A stretch of DNA of 64,000 nt from Clostridia bacterium (GTDB lineage Bacteria; Bacillota; Clostridia; Oscillospirales; Acutalibacteraceae): assembly GCA_017473165.1 (NCBI GenBank), contig JAFUNA010000014.1:62001-126000 (forward strand), given 5' to 3'. Positions 47,077-58,768 of this stretch are shown piece after piece (the first letter of the stretch is position 1; each line of letters starts with the position of its first letter). Position numbers and translations under genes: made by a program. Below the pieces are notes generated by a model. It was not told where the DNA came from. It ran no database searches and worked only from the letters and a program-made list of their open reading frames with translations.

Positions 47077-48192
47077 ATGATTTTGAAAAACGCCCTTGTA
47101 TACGGAAAGGATTTCACTCCCGAAATCACAGACATTGAAATTGAAGGCGAATTTATCAAGTCTGTCGGCAAGACCGATAAAGAAGGTGTTGACTTTAGCG
47201 GAAAGGTTATTTTGCCCGGCTTTATTGATATTCATATTCACGGCTGCAACATGGCAGATGCAACCGACGGAAATCCGGACTCTGTTCTTGAAATGAGCAA
47301 ATGGCTTGCACAAAACGGCATCACCTCTTTCTGCCCCACAACAATGACAATTTCCGCCGATGAAATCAGAAACAGCTTTAAATATGCTGCACAGGCAATG
47401 GGCAAAGAAGAGGGTGCTTATATCCACGGAATCAACATGGAGGGTCCGTTTATCGCTCCCGAAAAGAAGGGCGCACAGGCTGAAGAACACATTCTGAATC
47501 CCGATTTCAATTTCTTCCGTGAACTCAATGACATCTGCCCCGTAAAGCTTGTTGACATCGCCCCCGAAAGAAAGGGTGCAGAGGAATTCATTAAAAATGC
47601 AAAAAATATCTGCACCGTATCGGCTGCACACACAACCGCCGATTACACCGTGGGCACAAAGGCAATTGAATGGGGCATCACCCACGCAACGCATCTTTAC
47701 AACGCCATGAACGGACTTACATCAAGGGAAGCCGGAATGGTCGGTGCAGTTCTCGACAGCAATAACGTGAACGCAGAGCTTATCTGCGACGGAATACATA
47801 TTTCTCCCGCTACGCTGCGAATCACATTCAAGGCACTCGGCGAAGACAGAACGATTGTTATAAGCGATGCTATGATGGCTGCGGGTCTTGCCGACGGAGA
47901 TTACACTCTGGGCGGTCAGAGAGTTATCAAAAAAGACGGTGCGGCACGTCTTGCAGACGGTACTCTTGCAGGCAGCAGCACAAATCTTTTTGATGAGTTC
48001 AAAAACATCCTTTCATTCGGAATTCCCGTCAGACAGGCTGTTAAATCGGTTACAATCAACCCGGCGAAAGCAATCGGAGTTGACAAAACAACAGGCTCAA
48101 TTGAAGAAGGAAAGCTTGCAGATCTTGTTATTCTTAATGATGATTTTTCAAAAATAGAAAGCGTATTTGTTAAGGGAAAAAGAGTTAAATAA
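47077..48192 (+). CDS. nagA: N-acetylglucosamine-6-phosphate deacetylase
   Basis: NagA turns GlcNAc-6-phosphate into glucosamine-6-phosphate and acetate, for amino-sugar use or wall recycling. The 371-aa amidohydrolase has the metal motif PGFIDIHIHG (His53, His55), the substrate and metal Glu in NMEGPFIAPEKKGA, THLYNAMN and the catalytic Asp in VISDAMMAAGL. The start is ATG at 47077 behind TATGGAGG; a longer reading would run through the promoter. Alone here; nagB is not in the window, but GH84 and the SIS protein at 57-59 kb fit the same substrate. Confidence 0.96.
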   Translation: MILKNALVYGKDFTPEITDIEIEGEFIKSVGKTDKEGVDFSGKVILPGFIDIHIHGCNMADATDGNPDSVLEMSKWLAQNGITSFCPTTMTISADEIRNSFKYAAQAMGKEEGAYIHGINMEGPFIAPEKKGAQAEEHILNPDFNFFRELNDICPVKLVDIAPERKGAEEFIKNAKNICTVSAAHTTADYTVGTKAIEWGITHATHLYNAMNGLTSREAGMVGAVLDSNNVNAELICDGIHISPATLRITFKALGEDRTIVISDAMMAAGLADGDYTLGGQRVIKKDGAARLADGTLAGSSTNLFDEFKNILSFGIPVRQAVKSVTINPAKAIGVDKTTGSIEEGKLADLVILNDDFSKIESVFVKGKRVK

Positions 48193-48277
48193 TCGAAAGT
48201 TGAAGGTTATCCTGCATATTATAATATATATATAAATTATATACATTAATATATACATGAATATATGCAGTAATGGC

Positions 48278-48312
48278 AAAGAGCTTTACAGCCAAAGGTT
48301 GTAAAGCTCTTT
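48278..48312 (+). terminator. Hairpin after nagA
   Basis: A perfect 13-bp stem AAAGAGCTTTACA/TGTAAAGCTCTTT. No long T-run follows, but it is the first structure after nagA and a likely transcript end. Confidence 0.6.
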
Positions 48313-48381
48313 AACTTTCGGATGTGGAAAACTCGGTGGAAAAAGTGAATAACTCGCATTATAATTCCAAAAAGAACATTA

Positions 48382-48417
48382 AACCCGTAAAGTTTTCCAC
48401 TTTACGGGTTGTTTTTA
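48382..48417 (+). terminator. Second terminator after nagA
   Basis: A perfect 11-bp stem AACCCGTAAAG/CTTTACGGGTT followed by GTTTTTATT. A backup terminator for nagA, or the end of a small untranslated transcript from the AT-rich tract. Confidence 0.7.
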
Positions 48418-48543
48418 TTCCGATTTCGAATATTTTTATGCAGAATATACGGTATATGTGTGTGAATAAATTTTGCAGGATTTGCCGATTTCGCCGTCAT
48501 ATTTTGTTCATAAAATTATACTTTTTGTTAAATCATATGAGAT

Positions 48544-48574
48544 ATTCGGCGGCTTGGGTCAAGCCGCCCTACCA
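48544..48574 (-). repeat. Dispersed palindromic repeat, copy B
   Basis: Read on the minus strand this begins GTAGGGCGGCTTGACC and continues with CAAGCCGCC then GAATA, matching the copy at 7531-7561 except for one base missing in the centre and an A/G change. Confidence 0.7.
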
Positions 48575-48762
48575 TAATATTACGGCTTTTACTTGAGGAG
48601 ATGCTACGTCATAGAGAGTGATGAGGTGGAGGTTTTTGTCATCACTTCATCCATCGCAAGCAATCCACCTGCCTTAAAAGCGATGCTCCCCCACCGTGAA
48701 ATAAAACACGATAAACTTTGCACTTAAGGAATTTGCTGTTGTTTTAAATTAAATAAAGAAAT

Positions 48763-48797
48763 TCCCCGACTTTCCGAAGAAAGCCGGGGATATTTTT
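48763..48797 (-). terminator. Terminator of the dockerin-protein gene
   Basis: A 12-bp stem with one mismatch (48763-48774 with 48779-48790), CGAA loop, T-rich on both sides. It lies 30 bp after the stop of the minus-strand gene. Confidence 0.82.
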
Positions 48798-48826
48798 ATT
48801 AAACGCTAACTTGTATAGTTTCAGTA

Positions 48827-51800
48827 TCAGAGAACGACTTCACTTGTTGAGTGTGTAAGCTGGTTAATCTCGCCTCTGAATGTGTAGTGGTTAACGATTT
48901 CTGCAACGTCACCACCATCTACAAAGCCGTCATGGTTTGCGTCAGCTGCTTCATAAACTGCGGAGCCCATGTCACTGCTGTTTGCACTTTCGATAGCCAT
49001 GTAGTACTCAAGGTAAGATGCGTCTGTACCGTCAACACGGGCGTCACCGTTAAGGTCGCCGTAAACAACTGCGAAGTATCTGAACTTTTCAGAGTTGTTA
49101 ACACGTCCGCTGTAGTAAGCGCCTGTACCCATACCACGACCTGAAGGTGTGATTGTAACGGTGTTACCAACGCTTGAGTCAAGAGTCATACCAACAAGTT
49201 CAACGAGATCCATAACAGCACCAACGCCTTCTTCAAGGCCGTAAACCTGACCAACGATACGGTTATTAACGTTGGAGGTCTGGAGAATGTTAACGATGTT
49301 GCCGTTACCTGTTGTTACTTCTGAAGGAAGAATTGTGGGAGCAGTCTTATAAACAAGGAGACCGATTGCCTGGTTGAGTGTAGCAGCCATAACGTCAACT
49401 TCGCCCTGCTGTTCAGCATCGTAGTTTTCATCAGCGCTCATTGTCTTTGCTTCTGCAAGAATCTTGATGAGGTTGTTAAGTCCTGCTTCTTCAACACCGT
49501 AGGTTTCATCATATGTGAATTCATCATCAATAATCGTATCAGCGATTGCGATGAATGCATTAAGCTGTGTCTTATCAGCTGCACCGAGGTACTCGATAAG
49601 TGCCTGGTAAGCATCAAGGATTCCGTAGAATGCCTTTGTAACCTGACCCTGCGTGAAGCCTGCGCCGAGGGTTGCAGCGGATGCTGCGTTTGTAAGTGCC
49701 TGACCGTAGTCATAAGCTCTTCTGAATCTTTCATATGAAGATGAGGTATAAACCTTTACTTCAATGGGGTTGCCGTTAGCATCAAGACCTGTACCAAGCT
49801 TTTTATTTCTCTTGTTGGTTGTGGAGTTAACGTAAGCGGATCTTGTGTGATCAAGAAGCCAGTTAAGCATTGTGGGATCAAGGCGGCGAGCTCTGTCAGC
49901 TTCTGCAAGCTCATGGGTAAAGCCGATCATGTCAATCTTGTTGTAAAGGCTTCTTCTGTTAGAATAAAGAGCCTTTGCATAAGCTTCGTAGCTCTTGTAA
50001 ACCTGTAACTGAAGGTTCTGTGCTTCTGTCTTTTCCTTAACAGCACTGGTGTTCTGATATTCGGTGTAGCTTACGGGGTTGGATGTTACACCGTCAATGA
50101 AGGTGATGTTGTTGAAGATGGGTGCATAAGCAAGATGCTTAATATAATTGTTAACCGTTCCGTCTTCAGCGGTTTCTGATACACGTGTGAAGCCGAAGCC
50201 TGCACAGTAGTTATCAATCTTTGTAAGATCTTCCGCTGTGAGATTGCTCCAGTTCTTTGAGCCGTGGAAGCTGCCGTTTTCGTCAGCTGTAATGTCGAAG
50301 CTCATGTTTCCGAGAGCAGCTCTGACAATCATTTCGGTTTCCATTACGGTAAATACGCGGTCATTATCACGGTCAGCAGCATAATCATTTGCAAGCTGAA
50401 TCTGCTCAAAGTTTGCTGCAGTCATAGCATCTTCATGATCGCCGCCCATGTAAACAGTTAAGTTTTGACCGAGCATATCGTCATAGATTGTGAACGCTGT
50501 TGCTGAAGAGATTGTTAAGGGAAGCATTGCTGTGGGCTGTGAGGGATAGCCGTCAACGGGGTTACCGTCATCAGTCTGATTGCCGTTGGCATCTGTTGTG
50601 GGAGCAACATAGTCGCCATCGGACTCATTCTTTACGCTGTAGCCGTCGCCGTTTCTGTCGTAGATGTCATTGTTGTAAAGCTGGCATTCGATTGTGTACA
50701 TGATCCATGCTTTATAAGCATCGGGAAGATCGTTTGTTGCAAATGATCTGTAGGATGATGCATATTCATCTGCATCTTCGATAGCTTTCTTTGCATTCTG
50801 ATATCTGTAGCCGTTTGTAAAGTCTTCGAATTCAAAGAATCTGTAGTCGCTATCGTATGAAACGAAGGGTGCTCTGTTGGACATTATTGAAAACTTGAAG
50901 TCTGTGTAGTTTGTAACGTCACCGGCAGCATCTGTTGTGTCGTTAGCTTTTGCGGTTGTTGTGAGATAATCTCTTTCTTTGTAGAGATGATAGGTATATG
51001 TTTCAGTCTTTTCGTCTACAAGTTCTGAAACGATGTAGCAATTGTTGAGAGTCTTACGAAGCTCGTTAGCATCTGAATAGTCTTCAAATGTTGCCCAAAC
51101 GCTGCCGTCTGAAAGCTGGAGTTCATAAACGGTACCATCTGTTGAACGAACAACCTTTGAGGTTCCGTTTGTAAGGATTTCAGCTGTGTGTTCATCAAGG
51201 TTTGAAAGATAACGTTCAGCGTTTACGTTATCGGTGAACATCTTAACATAGTTTTCAAGGTCTTCAACTTTATATGCACGCATACCTGCACTTGTGAGAA
51301 CGCTGTCAGCGGGTCTTTCATATGAGGACTGTGCGATAAGGGGAAGAGCAACTGCAAGGAGCGATGCATTGCCGTTTACACCAAGTGTTCCGCCGCTTCT
51401 GTCCATAGCATAAAGCTGGATATAATTGAGGAGATTATAAATAAGAAGTGCAAGGCTGGAATCATTTGAAGGTGAGCCGTTAACCTGGGTTGAAAGAAGC
51501 TCATCAAGTGTTGTGATGTTTGTAACGTTTCCGTTAAGAACAACGCCGCTTCTGTTCTGGGGAGCAAGAACGCCTCTGTCGTTGAATACAGCTGCGAGAA
51601 CACGGTCAATAATTCTGATTACAACTGTGACAGCGGGCTTTGCAAGCTCTGCATCGGCACTTGTGTTAACCGAAAGAAGGTTGAGAATACCCTGGAGGTC
51701 GAAATTGATGAGGTTTTCAAGGAGAACGCTGTTGATGAGCTCGAATGAGCCGTTAAGGTTGGGAAGCCATGATTCGGGAAGAAGCTTAAGGAGAGTGTTA

Positions 51801-54046
51801 TCAATAAGCTGATAGATTGCATCCCAGTTTGCTTCGGGACTGATTGTTCTGCTTTCCCAGTTGGAGTAAACCTGACCGATGAAGTTGTTAACGTCTGCTG
51901 TCCATGTTCTGGCAACAGTTGTATTAACACCCGAGGCTGTTTCTACACCGGTAAGTGCGGGGAAGTAGTTCATAAAGCCCCAGACAAGGAATTCACCTGC
52001 AAACTGTTCAAGAGTTGTGTCGGTGTGGAGTTCGTCTTTTGAGTCTCTGATGAAGAGGATTGAATTGAGCTGTGCAGCAGCATAGGAGCTGATGATATCA
52101 AGAGCTGCCTTGGGAACTCTTACCTGTACGCCGTCATAAACCTTGTCAACATAGTAGTAGAGAGGTTCGATTGCTTCGCCGTTTGCATCAGCGGGAGCAA
52201 CGCCGCCCTGTGTAAGTTCATGGTATGCGTCAAGACGAGCATAGTAGTTGTTTTCGGGAAGGATGGGAACTGTGAGAGCTGCAAGACCGTAAGCAAGAAC
52301 CGAAGGAATGTCGGTTGTCCACTCGGGGAAGTAGCAGCCATCGATGAAATCATTAAGAGCCATCTTAATGATGCAAGCAAAAACGCTGTCTGTTGAAATT
52401 ACATAGTAGGGTCTGATATAGTTGGGGTTCATGTAATTTGCAGCTTTTTCATCTGTTGTGTTAAGAGGAAGATCTGTTGCGAAATAGTTGTAGCTGTCGA
52501 TTACGGTCGCACCGTCAGCTGTAACTGACTTTGATGCGGGGTAAACAAGCTCTTCTGTTTCGTATGTGAGGTAAAGCTGATCAACAATGCCCTCTGCATC
52601 GGGGTCAGAAACGATCTGCTTATCTGCTGTGTAATAATAAACTTCGTTGAGTTCATCTGCTGTGTAAGCAAGATGCATTGAGTCAGCGAAAAGTCCGAGG
52701 CCGGGAAGAAGGTTGATTGCAAGACGTCCAACGTCGTTGAGAAGTGACATGAAAGCGTCCTGAATGTGAATGCCGTAATAGTCAATCTTGATAAGAGTTT
52801 CAAGACCGCCGCCGGGCATCAGGAACCAATCAACAAGCTTCTGAACCTTGGGAATGGGATATGTGTTTTCGAATTCAGTATAGGTGATTTCAGGAGCACC
52901 GTTCTGAACCATGAGTCCTTCAACAGCACCGAGAATTGTGTTGAACATAACGTCGGTCATGAGTGAAGGATCGCCGTAGGGGAACTGCTCTGTTACTTCT
53001 GCATCGATAAGACCGAGAAGAAGGTCAAGAAGGAGATCGCCAAGCATACCGTCAAGGAGAGCCTGGAGAACGTTGTTAACGAGCTGATAGAAGCTCATTG
53101 TGTGGGTTTCGAGAGCACCGTCGCCGTCTCTGTCTGCCTGAATTGATGAAGCATAGAGACCTGCACCGCCGGGCTGTTCACCGATTGCGGGCATGAGAGG
53201 CGTGTGGTTTTCGCCAAGAAGAGAAGCAGCACCTTCTGCAGCGGATGTGCCTGTACCTTCGATAAGTGCCCAGTTAACAAGCTTCTGAACGCCTGTGTCG
53301 ATTGTTTCGCCTGAAGGAATAGTTTCAAGAGTGTCGTCAACAAGCTTTGTGTAAAGAAGGTTCTTGATACCTACGCCGAGGTTATCGAGTGATGAACCGG
53401 GAAGGAAGCCGGTGATGAGGTCGCCGATAAGACCTTCAAGGATAGAGCCCCACTTGAATGTACCGCCTACAACAGCCCTGAAAAGATTCTTCTGGTTACA
53501 TACCCAGTTAATTAACATTTCAAAAGTTTCTTTGTCGGTAACGGTGTTGTACTGTCTCTGAAGCGAAACGTCATAACCTGTACCGTTAAGACCTTTGCTT
53601 GAGTCAAGAACGTCACCAAGCAAACCAACGCCGTCTGCGAAGCCGACAAGCCAGTTGTTATCAAGACAGTCAAGAACGCCACTGAGGGTTCTGATTACGC
53701 CGTCAACGCTTCTGAAGTCAAGAAGACCTTTGGGGTTACCTGCATCTGCAAGCTTGTCGTCAAGGTTGAGCATCATGTTACTTGTGAAAATATTAAGACC
53801 GATGTTAGCCATGTCGTTCAATTCATCACAAGTCATGGTCAGGTTGCCTTCCTTGAGCAGGTTGTCAAGAAGGTCGAGAACATAGCCGCATGACTGTTCA
53901 TAAGTGAACCAGTAGAAGCCCTTGGATTCGTTGGGCTGGCGGAAGTTATCCGATGACAGGTTGGTTGCATAACCGGGAACAACCGCAACGGAGAAAATCA
54001 TAATCGCCGCCAACAAAACCGCTAAAAGTTGTTTTGCCTTTTTCAT
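48827..54046 (-). CDS. Giant secreted protein with FIVAR-like repeats and C-terminal dockerin
   Basis: A 1739-aa secreted protein, the largest in the window; overall function not recognised. It starts MKKAKQLLAVLLAAIMIFSVAVVPGYA, a clear signal peptide. The N-terminal 400 residues are rich in short amphipathic Leu/Gly/Asp helices; no glycosidase or protease motif is seen in the middle. Near the end are FIVAR-like helical repeats (about 1430-1640; YTSSSYERFRRAYDYG). The last 77 residues (from 1663) are a type I dockerin with two calcium loops, DLNGDARVDGTD and DANHDGFVDGGD. Dockerins bind cohesins of cellulosomes or surface scaffolds. The ATG at 54046 follows GGAGGTG. It is transcribed alone. 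Confidence 0.85.
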   Translation of the reverse strand: MKKAKQLLAVLLAAIMIFSVAVVPGYATNLSSDNFRQPNESKGFYWFTYEQSCGYVLDLLDNLLKEGNLTMTCDELNDMANIGLNIFTSNMMLNLDDKLADAGNPKGLLDFRSVDGVIRTLSGVLDCLDNNWLVGFADGVGLLGDVLDSSKGLNGTGYDVSLQRQYNTVTDKETFEMLINWVCNQKNLFRAVVGGTFKWGSILEGLIGDLITGFLPGSSLDNLGVGIKNLLYTKLVDDTLETIPSGETIDTGVQKLVNWALIEGTGTSAAEGAASLLGENHTPLMPAIGEQPGGAGLYASSIQADRDGDGALETHTMSFYQLVNNVLQALLDGMLGDLLLDLLLGLIDAEVTEQFPYGDPSLMTDVMFNTILGAVEGLMVQNGAPEITYTEFENTYPIPKVQKLVDWFLMPGGGLETLIKIDYYGIHIQDAFMSLLNDVGRLAINLLPGLGLFADSMHLAYTADELNEVYYYTADKQIVSDPDAEGIVDQLYLTYETEELVYPASKSVTADGATVIDSYNYFATDLPLNTTDEKAANYMNPNYIRPYYVISTDSVFACIIKMALNDFIDGCYFPEWTTDIPSVLAYGLAALTVPILPENNYYARLDAYHELTQGGVAPADANGEAIEPLYYYVDKVYDGVQVRVPKAALDIISSYAAAQLNSILFIRDSKDELHTDTTLEQFAGEFLVWGFMNYFPALTGVETASGVNTTVARTWTADVNNFIGQVYSNWESRTISPEANWDAIYQLIDNTLLKLLPESWLPNLNGSFELINSVLLENLINFDLQGILNLLSVNTSADAELAKPAVTVVIRIIDRVLAAVFNDRGVLAPQNRSGVVLNGNVTNITTLDELLSTQVNGSPSNDSSLALLIYNLLNYIQLYAMDRSGGTLGVNGNASLLAVALPLIAQSSYERPADSVLTSAGMRAYKVEDLENYVKMFTDNVNAERYLSNLDEHTAEILTNGTSKVVRSTDGTVYELQLSDGSVWATFEDYSDANELRKTLNNCYIVSELVDEKTETYTYHLYKERDYLTTTAKANDTTDAAGDVTNYTDFKFSIMSNRAPFVSYDSDYRFFEFEDFTNGYRYQNAKKAIEDADEYASSYRSFATNDLPDAYKAWIMYTIECQLYNNDIYDRNGDGYSVKNESDGDYVAPTTDANGNQTDDGNPVDGYPSQPTAMLPLTISSATAFTIYDDMLGQNLTVYMGGDHEDAMTAANFEQIQLANDYAADRDNDRVFTVMETEMIVRAALGNMSFDITADENGSFHGSKNWSNLTAEDLTKIDNYCAGFGFTRVSETAEDGTVNNYIKHLAYAPIFNNITFIDGVTSNPVSYTEYQNTSAVKEKTEAQNLQLQVYKSYEAYAKALYSNRRSLYNKIDMIGFTHELAEADRARRLDPTMLNWLLDHTRSAYVNSTTNKRNKKLGTGLDANGNPIEVKVYTSSSYERFRRAYDYGQALTNAASAATLGAGFTQGQVTKAFYGILDAYQALIEYLGAADKTQLNAFIAIADTIIDDEFTYDETYGVEEAGLNNLIKILAEAKTMSADENYDAEQQGEVDVMAATLNQAIGLLVYKTAPTILPSEVTTGNGNIVNILQTSNVNNRIVGQVYGLEEGVGAVMDLVELVGMTLDSSVGNTVTITPSGRGMGTGAYYSGRVNNSEKFRYFAVVYGDLNGDARVDGTDASYLEYYMAIESANSSDMGSAVYEAADANHDGFVDGGDVAEIVNHYTFRGEINQLTHSTSEVVL

Positions 54047-54234
54047 ATTTGCACCTCCAAAAAAATTGAACGCATTTCTGCGCCGAGACCCTTGCAAGAG
54101 GTCTCTTTGGTCGGACAGTTATCCTCTGCCCTACTTTACGTTAATTACTTTATAAAGGAGTTGTTGTGAATTCCGTGTGAATTATTAAACAATTTGTAAA
54201 GAAATTATGAACAAATTATTAACAAGTTCAAAAA
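54047..54234 (-). promoter_or_regulatory. Long leader region of the dockerin-protein gene
   Basis: The 188-bp upstream gap is AT-rich, with a near-palindrome GAGACCCTTGCAAGAGGTCTC read as two 10-base halves about 54086-54106, close to the ribosome site. Several TTG-type -35 candidates exist but none has a clear -10 partner at 17 bp. Confidence 0.4.
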
Positions 54235-54909
54235 TTATTCATGTTGCACAAAGTCTGTTTTCTGCCGTTGTGCATCTTCAACAACGGCTATCAATTCGTG
54301 CAAATTGTCAATCAGCTTTGCACCCGTTTTGTTCAGCCGGGATATATGCTCATGACCGCTCGTCAGCAGCACGCAATCCGCACCCAATTCCGCCGCCATT
54401 TCAGCATCGTGTTCAAGATCGCCGACCACCAGAACATGACCCTTTTCTGCACCGCTTTTTTCAAGGTAATCGACCGCTCTTTCTATCTTTGAGCCTGCAA
54501 AAAAATCACCCGAACCGAGCACGGCATCGAATTTTTCACGCACTCCATACTTGGTCATATTTAGTAATAACTGTTCATTATTAGACGAAGATACAACTGC
54601 TTGTTTTATGCCTTTTTCGGCAAAAAAAGCAATCGCTTCCCGTGCTCCGTCGGTTAATCCGCACCCCTCAAGGTAACGCAGATAACCCTCATTATATTGC
54701 TTTATAATCAAATTGTAATCGTCATTTTCAAGGTCAAAAACACGCTCGTAAAATTTTACAATCGGTACTCCGATGCATTCACGGTAAAAATCAATGTCAA
54801 TGGGCGGTTTTTCCCTCATTTCAAGCATATCGTTAACGCTTTGAAGCGATGATGATATGTCATTTAGCAGAGTACCGTTCCAATCCCATATAATGTGTGT
54901 GTATTTCAA
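54235..54909 (-). CDS. HAD-family hydrolase, phosphoglycolate-phosphatase-like
   Basis: A 224-aa HAD phosphatase: nucleophile Asp9 in IIWDWNGTLLND, motif II in AVVSSSNNEQLL, Lys region GSKIERAVDYL and motif III VVGDLEHDAEMAAELG. Cytoplasmic; substrate unknown (small sugar or nucleotide phosphates are usual). The start is TTG at 54909, 7 nt behind AAGGAGG; no ATG is available. Divergent from the MGMT-type gene. Confidence 0.9.
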   Translation of the reverse strand: MKYTHIIWDWNGTLLNDISSSLQSVNDMLEMREKPPIDIDFYRECIGVPIVKFYERVFDLENDDYNLIIKQYNEGYLRYLEGCGLTDGAREAIAFFAEKGIKQAVVSSSNNEQLLLNMTKYGVREKFDAVLGSGDFFAGSKIERAVDYLEKSGAEKGHVLVVGDLEHDAEMAAELGADCVLLTSGHEHISRLNKTGAKLIDNLHELIAVVEDAQRQKTDFVQHE

Positions 54910-56601: not shown

Positions 56602-57107
56602 TCTCCAAGTAAATGCTTAAGCTCAAGAATATCGGTCAGCTCCTCGCTGACAGCTTTCATATATTCAAGAATTTCCGGGTCACGCATAAGCGACCTTGCC
56701 GCCATTCTGACTTCTTTGACAAATTTAGGGTCAAGAAGGCGGTTTTCTCTTGCAAGCGGGCACATTCCCGCTCTCGGGTCATAAATAATTTTAATTTTAT
56801 TCTTTCCGTTATCCTCATAAACGATGGGAAACAGCGGAAAAATGCGGCAGGCAAGAGGTCTTTCCTCCCTGTTGCACTCTCCGGAGCATATCAGCATAGG
56901 GTAACCGTAGTTTCCCTCGGTTTCGCAAACATCAAAGCCTTCTTTGCCGTCAAAAAACTCCTTCTCATGGGGGTAAAGCCACATACCTTTACTGTCACCC
57001 CTGCAACAGAGTCCGTCGCAAATCCTGCCGCAGTTATAAAATCCGAGGGGTGTTTTATGATAAAGACGCTCATAGGCATCCTTTAATGCAGGGTGCAGAT
57101 TTTTCAT
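56598..57107 (-). CDS. Cysteine-cluster protein (YkgJ-like)
   Basis: A 169-aa soluble protein with many cysteines: GRICDGLCC near the N-terminus, then DVCETEGNYG, LICSGECN, LACRIFPL and AGMCPLARE. This layout resembles the YkgJ-type iron/zinc-chelating (Fe-S or Zn) family, whose function is unknown. The start is the ATG at 57107, which overlaps the GH84 stop (ATGA) and has AAAGGA upstream; a longer reading is rejected. Its stop overlaps the capA start, so all are translationally coupled. Confidence 0.72.
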   Translation of the reverse strand: MKNLHPALKDAYERLYHKTPLGFYNCGRICDGLCCRGDSKGMWLYPHEKEFFDGKEGFDVCETEGNYGYPMLICSGECNREERPLACRIFPLFPIVYEDNGKNKIKIIYDPRAGMCPLARENRLLDPKFVKEVRMAARSLMRDPEILEYMKAVSEELTDILELKHLLGE

Positions 57108-58768
57108 ATTGTAAGTGTCCTTTCGGCAAAGCTCTGCAGCGAAAAATCGCAAAGCGTTTTGGGATGTGCCAGATATTTTTTGAGAATTTCTCTTGTTTTT
57201 TGCTTGTTTTCATCGGAATTATTTACAATTGTTGCCGTTGCGGATTCAAGCAATTCAAGGGCGATTTTTTGTTTTTCCGCCCATGGCAGAAGCTCGGAAA
57301 CTTCAGGCATATCAACGGTTTCGGTAAATTCAATGCATTTCTTCAGCTTTTCAATATATGTCTGCATCACAGAATACGCACCGTTAATATCGCCCGCAAA
57401 AAACATCTGTTGTGCTTCATTGAGCACCGAATTCATCATAGGCGAATTTTCAACCTTAAGACATGAGAAAAGTAGGTTGTCAAGCAAAGGCATGAGCAGC
57501 TCTTTTTTATCCTTAAGCACAATTTCACAGGCCTTTTGCCATGACTCATAGCCGCTGTACTCAATCGGATTCCAAAGGTAGGCACAGACCGTCAGTAAAG
57601 GTATTCTGCTTGACATTCCGAACTCCATAACGTTGGAAATTATGCCCTCGGAATAACGGTACAAATCTTTTTCTCTGCCGTTTATATAGCCGATGTGCAT
57701 CTCGTTTTGCATTTCAGCATCGTTGACAGGGAAGTTATCCCAATAGAGCGGTTTATGATTTGTTGCGTTTTCAAAAACAACCGCTTCACGCACGGTCAGC
57801 TCCTGCGAGCAGATGTTTTTTCCTGTCCAGAAAAGGCTGACCTTTGAAGGGATTCCCCTGCCGAGCTTTGAGATAAAATATTCATCTCCCCTGCCGTGAT
57901 ACTGCAAGGGGCAAACTGTAAGGGAGCAATTCTCATTCAAATTTGTAAGAAATAAGTTGAATTTATTGATAAGGGCAATATGTGCGTTAACGGCTTCACC
58001 GTCAAACGCCGCTTTATCTTCGTCAAACCACAGATTTTCGGGAATGTCATCAAGAAGCAGTCCGAAATTTCTTATTCCAATGTTGTAAAGTTGTTCGACT
58101 TTACGGCAAAGCTTTTCAAAATCGGCATCGGAAGAATATTTCATGCTCAATCCCGGAGCGATGCAATAATGAAAATCAACAAATTTTTCCTTGCAGATTT
58201 CTGCAAGCTCCGAAAGCTGCTTAAGTTCTTTTTCGGGATAAAGCTCGTCCCATTTATCACGGTGATAAGGGTCATCTTTCGGGGCATAATAATGTGTGTT
58301 CATGCCGTAAAAAGACAGTAAATCAAGATTGGAAATGCGTGTTTCAAAATCCCACGGTTTGCCGTAAAAGCCTTCTATATAGCCCCTTTTGACAAACAGA
58401 GGGTAGTCCTCAACCTCTCCGACAAAGAAGTTTTTATCACCAAGCATCTGACGAATTCTGCAAACTGCTCTGAACAGACTTTTTTTGCCCGAAACGGTAA
58501 GCTTGATATGCAGTCCGTCGCTGCGTTTTTCGGAATTTATGATGAACTTTTCATCGGTTATGCGGTTTGCTTCTTCGATATATTCCGTGCGGCGGGTATT
58601 CTCTTTGGATATATCTATGTAAAGTTTATTCGCTTTACATAACTTACTCTTTTTGAAGCTGATTTCACTTGCCGCAAATTCGTTTTCATAGCCCAAAACA
58701 ACAATATCCGAAAACAAACAGTCTGTCCATTCCGTTATTTTGGATTTTTGGAAAGCGGGATAAATCAT
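57104..58768 (-). CDS. GH84 beta-N-acetylglucosaminidase
   Basis: A 554-aa GH84 enzyme (O-GlcNAcase/NagJ type) that removes terminal beta-GlcNAc by substrate-assisted catalysis. It has an N-terminal alpha/beta domain (about 1-120), then RGYIEGFYGKPW (128-139) and the catalytic Asp pair Asp240-Asp241 in GLLLDDIPENL; YYAPKDDPYHRDKW is also typical. The C-terminus is helical. No signal peptide, unlike secreted clostridial NagJ, so it acts in the cytoplasm. Overlaps both neighbours by 4 bp. Confidence 0.93.
   Translation of the reverse strand: MIYPAFQKSKITEWTDCLFSDIVVLGYENEFAASEISFKKSKLCKANKLYIDISKENTRRTEYIEEANRITDEKFIINSEKRSDGLHIKLTVSGKKSLFRAVCRIRQMLGDKNFFVGEVEDYPLFVKRGYIEGFYGKPWDFETRISNLDLLSFYGMNTHYYAPKDDPYHRDKWDELYPEKELKQLSELAEICKEKFVDFHYCIAPGLSMKYSSDADFEKLCRKVEQLYNIGIRNFGLLLDDIPENLWFDEDKAAFDGEAVNAHIALINKFNLFLTNLNENCSLTVCPLQYHGRGDEYFISKLGRGIPSKVSLFWTGKNICSQELTVREAVVFENATNHKPLYWDNFPVNDAEMQNEMHIGYINGREKDLYRYSEGIISNVMEFGMSSRIPLLTVCAYLWNPIEYSGYESWQKACEIVLKDKKELLMPLLDNLLFSCLKVENSPMMNSVLNEAQQMFFAGDINGAYSVMQTYIEKLKKCIEFTETVDMPEVSELLPWAEKQKIALELLESATATIVNNSDENKQKTREILKKYLAHPKTLCDFSLQSFAERTLTI

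What the first reader, a model, noticed from the sequence alone, without database searches (positions are those of the whole stretch)
48827..54046. 1739-aa dockerin protein without a recognisable catalytic domain
Dockerins usually carry enzymes or binding modules to cohesin scaffolds. This protein has about 1650 residues of unknown helical sequence before the dockerin, including FIVAR-like repeats. It could be a new kind of cellulosome or surface component. The gene also appears to use codons like the ribosomal protein and ACP genes, hinting at high expression.
Basis: partly seen in the sequence, partly recalled or inferred. Interest (0 to 1): 0.7.

Follow-up and report, generated by a model that had tools for sequence, protein, structure and literature searches.

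The report
Enzyme-free cohesin-dockerin surface coat protein
This uncultured gut bacterium encodes a 1739-residue protein with a signal peptide and a calcium-type dockerin, and its genome also carries a divergent cohesin-like domain on a giant protein with a cell-wall sorting signal, so the protein is predicted to plug into a surface scaffold that, unlike known sugar-digesting cellulosomes, likely carries no enzymes.

Summary
In detail: a 1739-aa minus-strand gene with signal peptide, about 1,390 residues of unknown sequence, two FIVAR-like repeats, an X-type module and a dockerin with both calcium loops complete. Codon use is ribosomal-like (rank 11 of 83 open frames). Pfam's cohesin model finds nothing in the genome, so the dockerin looks orphaned. 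But a divergent cohesin-like domain (named Coh* here) is present three times; one copy begins a 2434-aa InlB-repeat protein that ends in an IPATG sorting signal and also has ribosomal-like codon use. Coh* is tied to cohesins by Pfam (4 of 41 domains, best 7.7e-6) and by a two-step profile chain (1.8e-12, 1.1e-7); the direct comparison is weak (2.1e-4). It occurs in 23 of 25 genomes that carry this gene family. In relatives, Coh* proteins often end in the same X-dockerin, as adaptor scaffolds would. No catalytic Pfam family was listed for any X-dockerin protein scanned (83 of the 99 collected, plus relatives). Best reading: an abundant, non-catalytic client of a wall-anchored, enzyme-free cohesin-dockerin surface assembly. 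New variant of a known kind.

The parts
48827..54046 (-). whole gene, 1739 aa plus stop codon
   Evidence: GGAGG 7 nt before the ATG
53966..54046 (-). signal peptide, residues 1-27 (end judged by eye; MKKAKRLLAVLLAAVM motif)
   Evidence: alignment of 29 relatives
51272..53965 (-). residues 28-925, unknown region with helical periodicity, holds the most conserved motif GCYFPEW (570-576)
   Evidence: no Pfam or PDB match
49805..51271 (-). residues 926-1414, second unknown region
   Evidence: no Pfam or PDB match
49589..49804 (-). FIVAR-like repeat 1, residues 1415-1486
49349..49588 (-). FIVAR-like repeat 2, residues about 1487-1566
   Evidence: hit in a close relative and by profile-profile comparison
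49067..49348 (-). X-type module before the dockerin, residues about 1567-1660, shared with other dockerin proteins of the family
   Evidence: alignment A4
48890..49063 (-). dockerin, residues 1662-1719
   Evidence: PF00404 1.4e-7
49022..49057 (-). calcium loop 1, residues 1664-1675 (DLNGDARVDGTD)
   Evidence: ligand positions identical in 91 of 91 sequences
48908..48943 (-). calcium loop 2, residues 1702-1713 (DANHDGFVDGGD)
   Evidence: first and last Asp in 91 of 91; N1704 60, D1706 75, D1710 87 of 91
54047..54142 (-). untranslated leader with two hairpins that are kept in relatives
48763..48790 (-). terminator-like hairpin after the gene (12 pairs)
   Evidence: 7 such patterns found, 5.9 expected by chance

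Best explanation
The gene encodes a 1739-residue protein with a signal peptide and a C-terminal dockerin whose calcium loops are complete, and it most likely works as a non-catalytic client predicted to dock, with calcium, onto the divergent cohesin-like domain (Coh*) at the start of a 2434-aa InlB-repeat protein that is likely fixed to the cell wall by sortase. Shown by sequence: the X-dockerin unit, both calcium loops, Coh* three times in the same genome, the sorting signal, two sortase genes, and ribosomal-like codon use of both partners. Inferred: that Coh* is a working cohesin and binds this dockerin, that the pair is abundant at the surface, and that the roughly 1,390 unknown residues form a long, mostly helical structural or adhesive arm. 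In related species Coh* proteins that themselves end in X-dockerin would act as adaptors, so the parts could build chained surface fibres. No enzyme was recognised among the parts, so the assembly is likely a coat or adhesion device rather than a digestive cellulosome.
For: Complete dockerin with loop-1 ligands in 91 of 91 sequences and kept recognition positions (G in 86, T in 74). Coh* in the own genome: contig 18, contig 9 and a contig-edge piece on contig 7. Contig-18 protein ends IPATG-hydrophobic-RKKKED; Coh* proteins with such an end in six genomes (own, G015, G145, G202, G203, G204). Two sortases. Cohesin link: PF00963 in 4 of 41 Coh* domains, best 7.7e-6; Coh* to P0121 family 1.8e-12 and P0121 family to nine cohesins 1.1e-7, 18 decoys 0.094 or worse. 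Co-occurrence: 3 of 200 family genomes, exactly the three congeners; 21 of 23 genomes behind the gene-family loci (18, three more); with own and G015 23 of 25. Codon use 0.746, 0.750 and 0.788 for this gene, the anchor scaffold and the other own X-dockerin protein (ranks 11, 9, 2 of 83). No catalytic family listed in X-dockerin proteins. Same build in Limousia of the same bacterial family: cSca5 with N-terminal cohesin and C-terminal LPxTG, most expressed gene (PMC12997984, passages and section 22).
Against: No binding, location or abundance data. Direct Coh* to cohesin comparison is weak (2.1e-4, 39 columns, 8% identity), 37 of 41 Coh* domains do not match PF00963 even at E up to 10, and a PDB profile search gave no cohesin. 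One unrelated profile pair reached 0.008. G216 and G221 carry the gene but no Coh* was found, and two of 17 other family genomes have Coh* without a full-length copy (G014, G018; G018's domain was in the profile). Co-occurrence is confounded by shared ancestry in one genus. The contig-9 Coh* protein has only 0.582 codon adaptation (rank 27). Many X-dockerins are diverged: Pfam calls a dockerin at 1e-5 in 11 of 28 and 2 of 16 scanned groups. The genome is 88% complete, so partners may be missing.
Confidence: 0.58

Rival explanations
1. It is a new type of enzyme in a cellulosome-like complex: residues 28-1414 form an unrecognised catalytic unit and the dockerin recruits it to the Coh* scaffold for glycan breakdown.
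For: The gene sits near amino-sugar genes: an amidohydrolase and a PF07555 NAGidase. Some aromatic and acidic residues are invariant, such as the GCYFPEW motif.
Against: No catalytic family in Pfam, NCBIfam or PDB matches. The X-dockerin partners scanned are InlB, LRR, Ig-like and helical proteins without catalytic families. The neighbours are conserved by position, not as an operon.
Confidence: 0.13
2. The dockerin does not dock to Coh*: it is a calcium-stabilised end cap or binds a cohesin of another cell or of a mobile element, and the protein is released or held by other means.
For: Pfam finds no cohesin in the own genome. The Coh* to cohesin link is indirect. Genus mate G145 has a canonical cohesin-dockerin protein in a recombinase-rich stretch (L047).
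Against: Coh* travels with the gene family in 23 of 25 genomes, and a Coh* gene lies directly beside a diverged relative in G018. Loop-1 ligands and recognition positions are strongly kept, which an end cap would not need.
Confidence: 0.17
3. It is an S-layer-like lattice protein: the long helical region self-assembles into a two-dimensional coat and the dockerin only tethers it.
For: Ribosomal-like codon use, a leader with kept hairpins, one copy per own genome, large size. A role of dockerins in structuring the cell surface was suggested for Ruminococcus flavefaciens (PMC2930009, passages).
Against: No SLH or other known wall-binding domain in the protein and no test of self-assembly. It cannot be told from the best explanation with the data at hand.
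Confidence: 0.1

Closest known systems
Limousia mucinolysome, above all the anchoring scaffoldin cSca5 (PMC12997984; abstract, passages and section 22 seen)
   Same: Bacteria of the family Acutalibacteraceae; cohesin at the N-terminus and a sortase signal at the C-terminus of the anchor; scaffoldins that carry their own dockerins; anchor very highly expressed.
   Different: There the cohesins are found by Pfam and the dockerins sit on mucin-degrading enzymes and peptidases; here the cohesin escapes Pfam in the own genome and no enzyme was recognised among the dockerin proteins.
Dockerin proteins with unknown domains of Ruminococcus flavefaciens FD-1 (PMC2930009; passages seen)
   Same: 118 dockerin proteins there have regions without known relatives, and LRR-dockerin proteins occur; the authors allow a role in structuring the cell surface.
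   Different: FD-1 has a full enzyme-bearing cellulosome with many dockerins; the present genome has two dockerin proteins by Pfam and by the X-dockerin profile.
Clostridium perfringens cohesin-dockerin pairs of secreted glycosidases (passages in PMC12997984; the FIVAR-dockerin pairing is recalled)
   Same: Few cohesins and dockerins, and FIVAR modules directly before the dockerin (recalled).
   Different: There both partners carry glycosidase domains; here neither does.
Dockerin and cohesin proteins of ANME archaea (PMC9012536; passages seen)
   Same: Cohesin-dockerin modules on extracellular proteins outside cellulose digestion.
   Different: Archaeal; no sequence link was tested.

Membership tests
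Dockerin type I (PF00404) | match over the curated cut-off | tested here: met
   32 bits against 22.9
Dockerin type I (PF00404) | two calcium loops with D/N ligands | tested here: met
   loop 1 in 91 of 91; loop 2 complete in this protein, looser in relatives
Dockerin type I (PF00404) | calcium-dependent binding of a cohesin | not testable with these tools
   needs binding assay; structure tool off
Cohesin (PF00963), for the partner domain Coh* | match to the family model | tested here: inconclusive
   4 of 41 domains match, best 7.7e-6; the own contig-18 domain does not; no match in the own genome by the Pfam search
Cohesin (PF00963), for the partner domain Coh* | profile relation to canonical cohesins | tested here: met
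   two-step chain 1.8e-12 and 1.1e-7; direct 2.1e-4; decoys 0.094 or worse, one unrelated pair 0.008
Cohesin (PF00963), for the partner domain Coh* | nine-strand jelly-roll fold (recalled) | not testable with these tools
   structure prediction switched off
Cellulosome | scaffoldin with cohesin(s) and a surface anchor | tested here: met
   contig-18 protein: Coh* plus IPATG-type end, subject to Coh* being a cohesin
Cellulosome | dockerin-bearing carbohydrate-active enzymes | tested here: not met
   own genome: two dockerin proteins, none with a catalytic family; none listed in scanned relatives
FIVAR (PF07554) | match over the curated cut-off | tested here: not met
   no hit in this protein at E up to 1; best relative 0.00062, under the cut-off
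FIVAR (PF07554) | profile relation to called FIVAR repeats | tested here: met
   6.5e-9 and 9e-8
S-layer protein | known wall-binding domain such as SLH | tested here: not met
   none by Pfam
S-layer protein | two-dimensional self-assembly | not testable with these tools
   needs microscopy

The most novel reading that the evidence does not exclude
A genus of uncultured herbivore-gut Clostridia has turned the cohesin-dockerin system into a pure building kit: a divergent cohesin on wall-anchored and adaptor fibres of InlB repeats, and giant helical dockerin proteins as the coat, with no enzymes at all; a calcium-docked exoskeleton, S-layer-like or adhesive, among the most abundant proteins of the cell.
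Probability: 0.35. Interest if true: 0.8.

Novelty: new variant of a known kind. Interest (0 to 1): 0.62.

Why it matters
Surveys that look for cohesins with the Pfam model alone would call this dockerin an orphan and the genome free of such assemblies. A divergent cohesin subfamily that travels with the dockerin proteins would widen the known range of these modules, offer new binding pairs for protein engineering, and give a directly testable account of how a group of uncultured gut Clostridia builds its surface. If the assembly truly lacks enzymes, it separates cohesin-dockerin assembly from glycan digestion in close kin of mucin and fibre degraders.

Tried and rejected
A canonical cohesin in the own genome was sought and not found. 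A PDB profile search with Coh* gave only two baseplate chains at 0.74-0.76. Pfam near-misses under their cut-offs were dismissed as chance: LBD_receptor 0.015, AcetDehyd-dimer 0.0017 and Adenylsucc_synt 0.0079 in single relatives, Hydant_A_N 0.00021. The longer TTG start was set aside for lack of a better ribosome-binding site. No Rfam family in 48100-54400. Paper searches: 'dockerin' with 'InlB B-repeat' none, 'dockerin' with 'Acutalibacteraceae' three; that Coh* and this gene family are not in print rests only in an open-licence library. Peer et al. 2009 on non-cellulosomal cohesins is not held.

Corrections made: two cohesins (L016, L020) were first read on the wrong strand and corrected; the quoted numbers use the corrected set. 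In one search the machine labels were mended by hand: of 23 'helical-other' rows four bear Coh* (L053:1659, L115:4923, L208:1439, L209:3433) and are counted as adaptors, L046 is a piece of the present family, and L054:4138 is a relative from G063; L049 was labelled an ortholog but by its start belongs to the second helical family, and L049 and L050 were rows of the profile used. Several of the 37 'other' open frames are cut by a contig or fetch edge, so their missing ends were not scanned; alignment scans at 1e-5 would not list weaker matches.

Full report
What is there. The gene runs from 54046 down to 48827 on the minus strand and encodes 1739 residues. GGAGG lies 7 nt before the ATG and a terminator-like hairpin of 12 pairs follows the stop, so it may be a single-gene unit. 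From N to C: signal peptide (by eye), unknown region 28-925, unknown region 926-1414, two FIVAR-like repeats, an X-type module and a dockerin. The five ligand positions of calcium loop 1 are the same in 91 of 91 aligned sequences; loop positions 10 and 11, recalled as the recognition positions, are G in 86 and T in 74. Loop 2 keeps its first and last Asp in 91 of 91, the rest less strictly, and its positions 10-11 vary.

The family. A protein search returned 182 relatives among 7992 scored candidates; the 120 listed are 1682-1958 aa long and cover 98-100% of the query; most, not all, carry a precomputed PF00404. An alignment of 29 shows conservation from signal peptide to dockerin. A scan of one genome per species gave 25 loci, which lie in 23 genomes; 17 of the 25 record titles name a herbivore sample (deer, reindeer, goat, sheep, yak, water buffalo or horse). 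In 200 genomes of the same bacterial family a full-length match appears only in the own genome and in congener G145, with a diverged one in pieces in congener G015; 75 of 200 genomes match in some part, chiefly the N-terminal region or the dockerin end. In seven of the 25 loci, as in the window, the gene lies between a HAD phosphatase gene and an amidohydrolase gene; others show one of the two or are cut, and the diverged loci have other neighbours. In four loci (L024, L025, L029, L035) the far side is instead a gene that I take by eye for an alpha-N-acetylglucosaminidase, followed by pyrH and frr; in the own genome that place holds the other dockerin gene, on contig 14.

The partner. Pfam's cohesin finds nothing in the own genome, not even a candidate, although 134 of 200 family genomes have a match. 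A protein of genome G018 (P0122) whose gene lies directly downstream of a diverged relative led to two large own proteins that share a domain, named Coh* here: residues about 24-220 of a 2434-aa protein on contig 18 and about 854-1048 of a 1476-aa protein on contig 9. A profile added a third copy on contig 7, a signal peptide and the start of Coh* cut by the contig edge. The contig-18 protein continues with InlB/Flg_new repeats (26 stretches) and SHIRT domains (4) and ends IPATGSAAGIAAFAVISCAAAAAYVITRKKKED, a sortase-type signal by eye. Two sortase genes are present.

Is Coh* a cohesin? Of 41 Coh* domains scanned, 4 match PF00963, best 7.7e-6; no other family matches more than two. Profile comparison links Coh* to the P0121 family (1.8e-12, 123 columns) and that family to nine canonical cohesins (1.1e-7, 98 columns); 18 decoy windows gave 0.094 or worse and reversed profiles 0.019 or worse. 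An earlier unrelated pair reached 0.008. The direct comparison is weaker (2.1e-4, 39 columns) and no cohesin chain of the PDB was found. I call it a likely divergent cohesin, not a proven one.

Do they go together? With a single query, Coh* occurs in 3 of 200 family genomes, the three congeners, and in 18 of the 23 genomes behind the gene-family loci. With a profile, three of the five misses become positive and G216 and G221 stay negative; among 17 other family genomes two are positive, G014 and G018, and the G018 domain was part of the profile. G213 is the same genome as G145, judged by identical coordinates and contig length. With the own genome and G015, 23 of 25 genomes that carry the gene have Coh*. 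Shared ancestry within the genus explains part of this.

Architecture of the kit. In six genomes (own, G015, G145, G202, G203, G204) a Coh* protein ends in the sortase-type signal; in others one or two N-terminal Coh* domains are followed by InlB repeats and a C-terminal X-dockerin, often in neighbouring genes. The X-dockerin profile matches in 25 of 25 such genomes, twice in the own. From the fetched stretches 99 distinct X-dockerin open frames were collected and, after hand correction, fall into 26 of the present family, 18 of a second helical family of about 1660-1790 aa with one or two FIVAR-like repeats, one relative from G063, 17 with Coh* plus X-dockerin, and 37 others. Pfam scans covered all 37 others (28, six, two, one), 17 of 17 adaptors (16, one), 18 of 18 of the second family (16, L173, L049), the G063 relative, and 10 of the 26 present-family frames besides the window protein: 83 of 99. 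The families listed are InlB, LRR, Ig-like, MucBP, fn3-type and Chitobiase C-terminal accessory domains, FIVAR, dockerin and two canonical cohesins; no catalytic family was over its cut-off. Dockerins without the X module could have been missed in the relatives; in the own genome the Pfam dockerin and the X-dockerin profile find the same two proteins. Many X-dockerins are diverged from the Pfam model: it is called at 1e-5 in 11 of 28 and 2 of 16 scanned groups.

Expression. Against 20 ribosomal genes of the own genome the adaptation index is 0.746 for this gene, 0.750 for the anchor scaffold and 0.788 for the contig-14 X-dockerin protein: ranks 11, 9 and 2 of 83 open frames of 140 aa or more; the ribosomal genes average 0.705. 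The contig-9 Coh* protein is at 0.582, rank 27. The leader before the gene holds two hairpins; in 10 species 5 of 12 pairs have changes on both sides (reached by 9 of 500 shuffles) and sliding the partners by 1-3 columns lowers the paired cells from 87.5% to 49.2% or less. In Limousia the anchoring scaffoldin is reported as the most expressed gene of its genome (PMC12997984, passages), which fits but proves nothing here.

How it most likely works. Shown by sequence: export signal, dockerin with calcium loops, Coh* scaffold with sorting signal, sortases, codon bias. Inferred: the scaffold is fixed to the wall, Coh* holds the dockerin, and the long unknown region reaches outward as a structural or adhesive arm. 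Not tested: binding, location, abundance, structure. The reading as a kit without enzymes rests on the absence of recognised catalytic domains and cannot exclude an unknown enzyme in residues 28-1414.

Verdict. It is a new variant of the known cohesin-dockerin kind, with a divergent cohesin and no recognised enzymes.

Noticed in passing
54047-54142: Long leader before the gene with two hairpins whose pairs change on both sides in relatives (5 of 12 pairs in 10 species); a possible mRNA-stabilising element.
   Followed up: partly
L049, L173, L176, L178-L180, L182-L185, L188-L191, L197, L200, L202, L203: A second family of giant X-dockerin proteins (about 1660-1790 aa) with FIVAR-like repeats and no catalytic Pfam family; not found in the own, incomplete genome.
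   Followed up: partly
L024, L025, L029, L035 against L051: The relatives of this gene there sit where the own genome carries its other dockerin gene, next to the same conserved cluster; possibly a rearrangement between two X-dockerin genes.
   Followed up: no
L047:3396-4097: Congener G145 has a 234-aa canonical cohesin-dockerin protein among recombinase-like genes, perhaps on a mobile element.
   Followed up: no
L052:7168-14001: In G056 an 881-aa protein related to the N-terminal region is followed by a row of small secreted proteins with dockerin-like repeats near their N-termini.
   Followed up: no
57104-58768: NAGidase (PF07555) protein without an evident signal peptide beside a SIS-domain gene: probably intracellular amino-sugar use.
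   Followed up: no
L164:1-600 and L051:8673-12092 (own contigs 7 and 14): A Coh* start cut by one contig edge and an InlB-X-dockerin end cut by another; they could be two ends of one adaptor gene.
   Followed up: no
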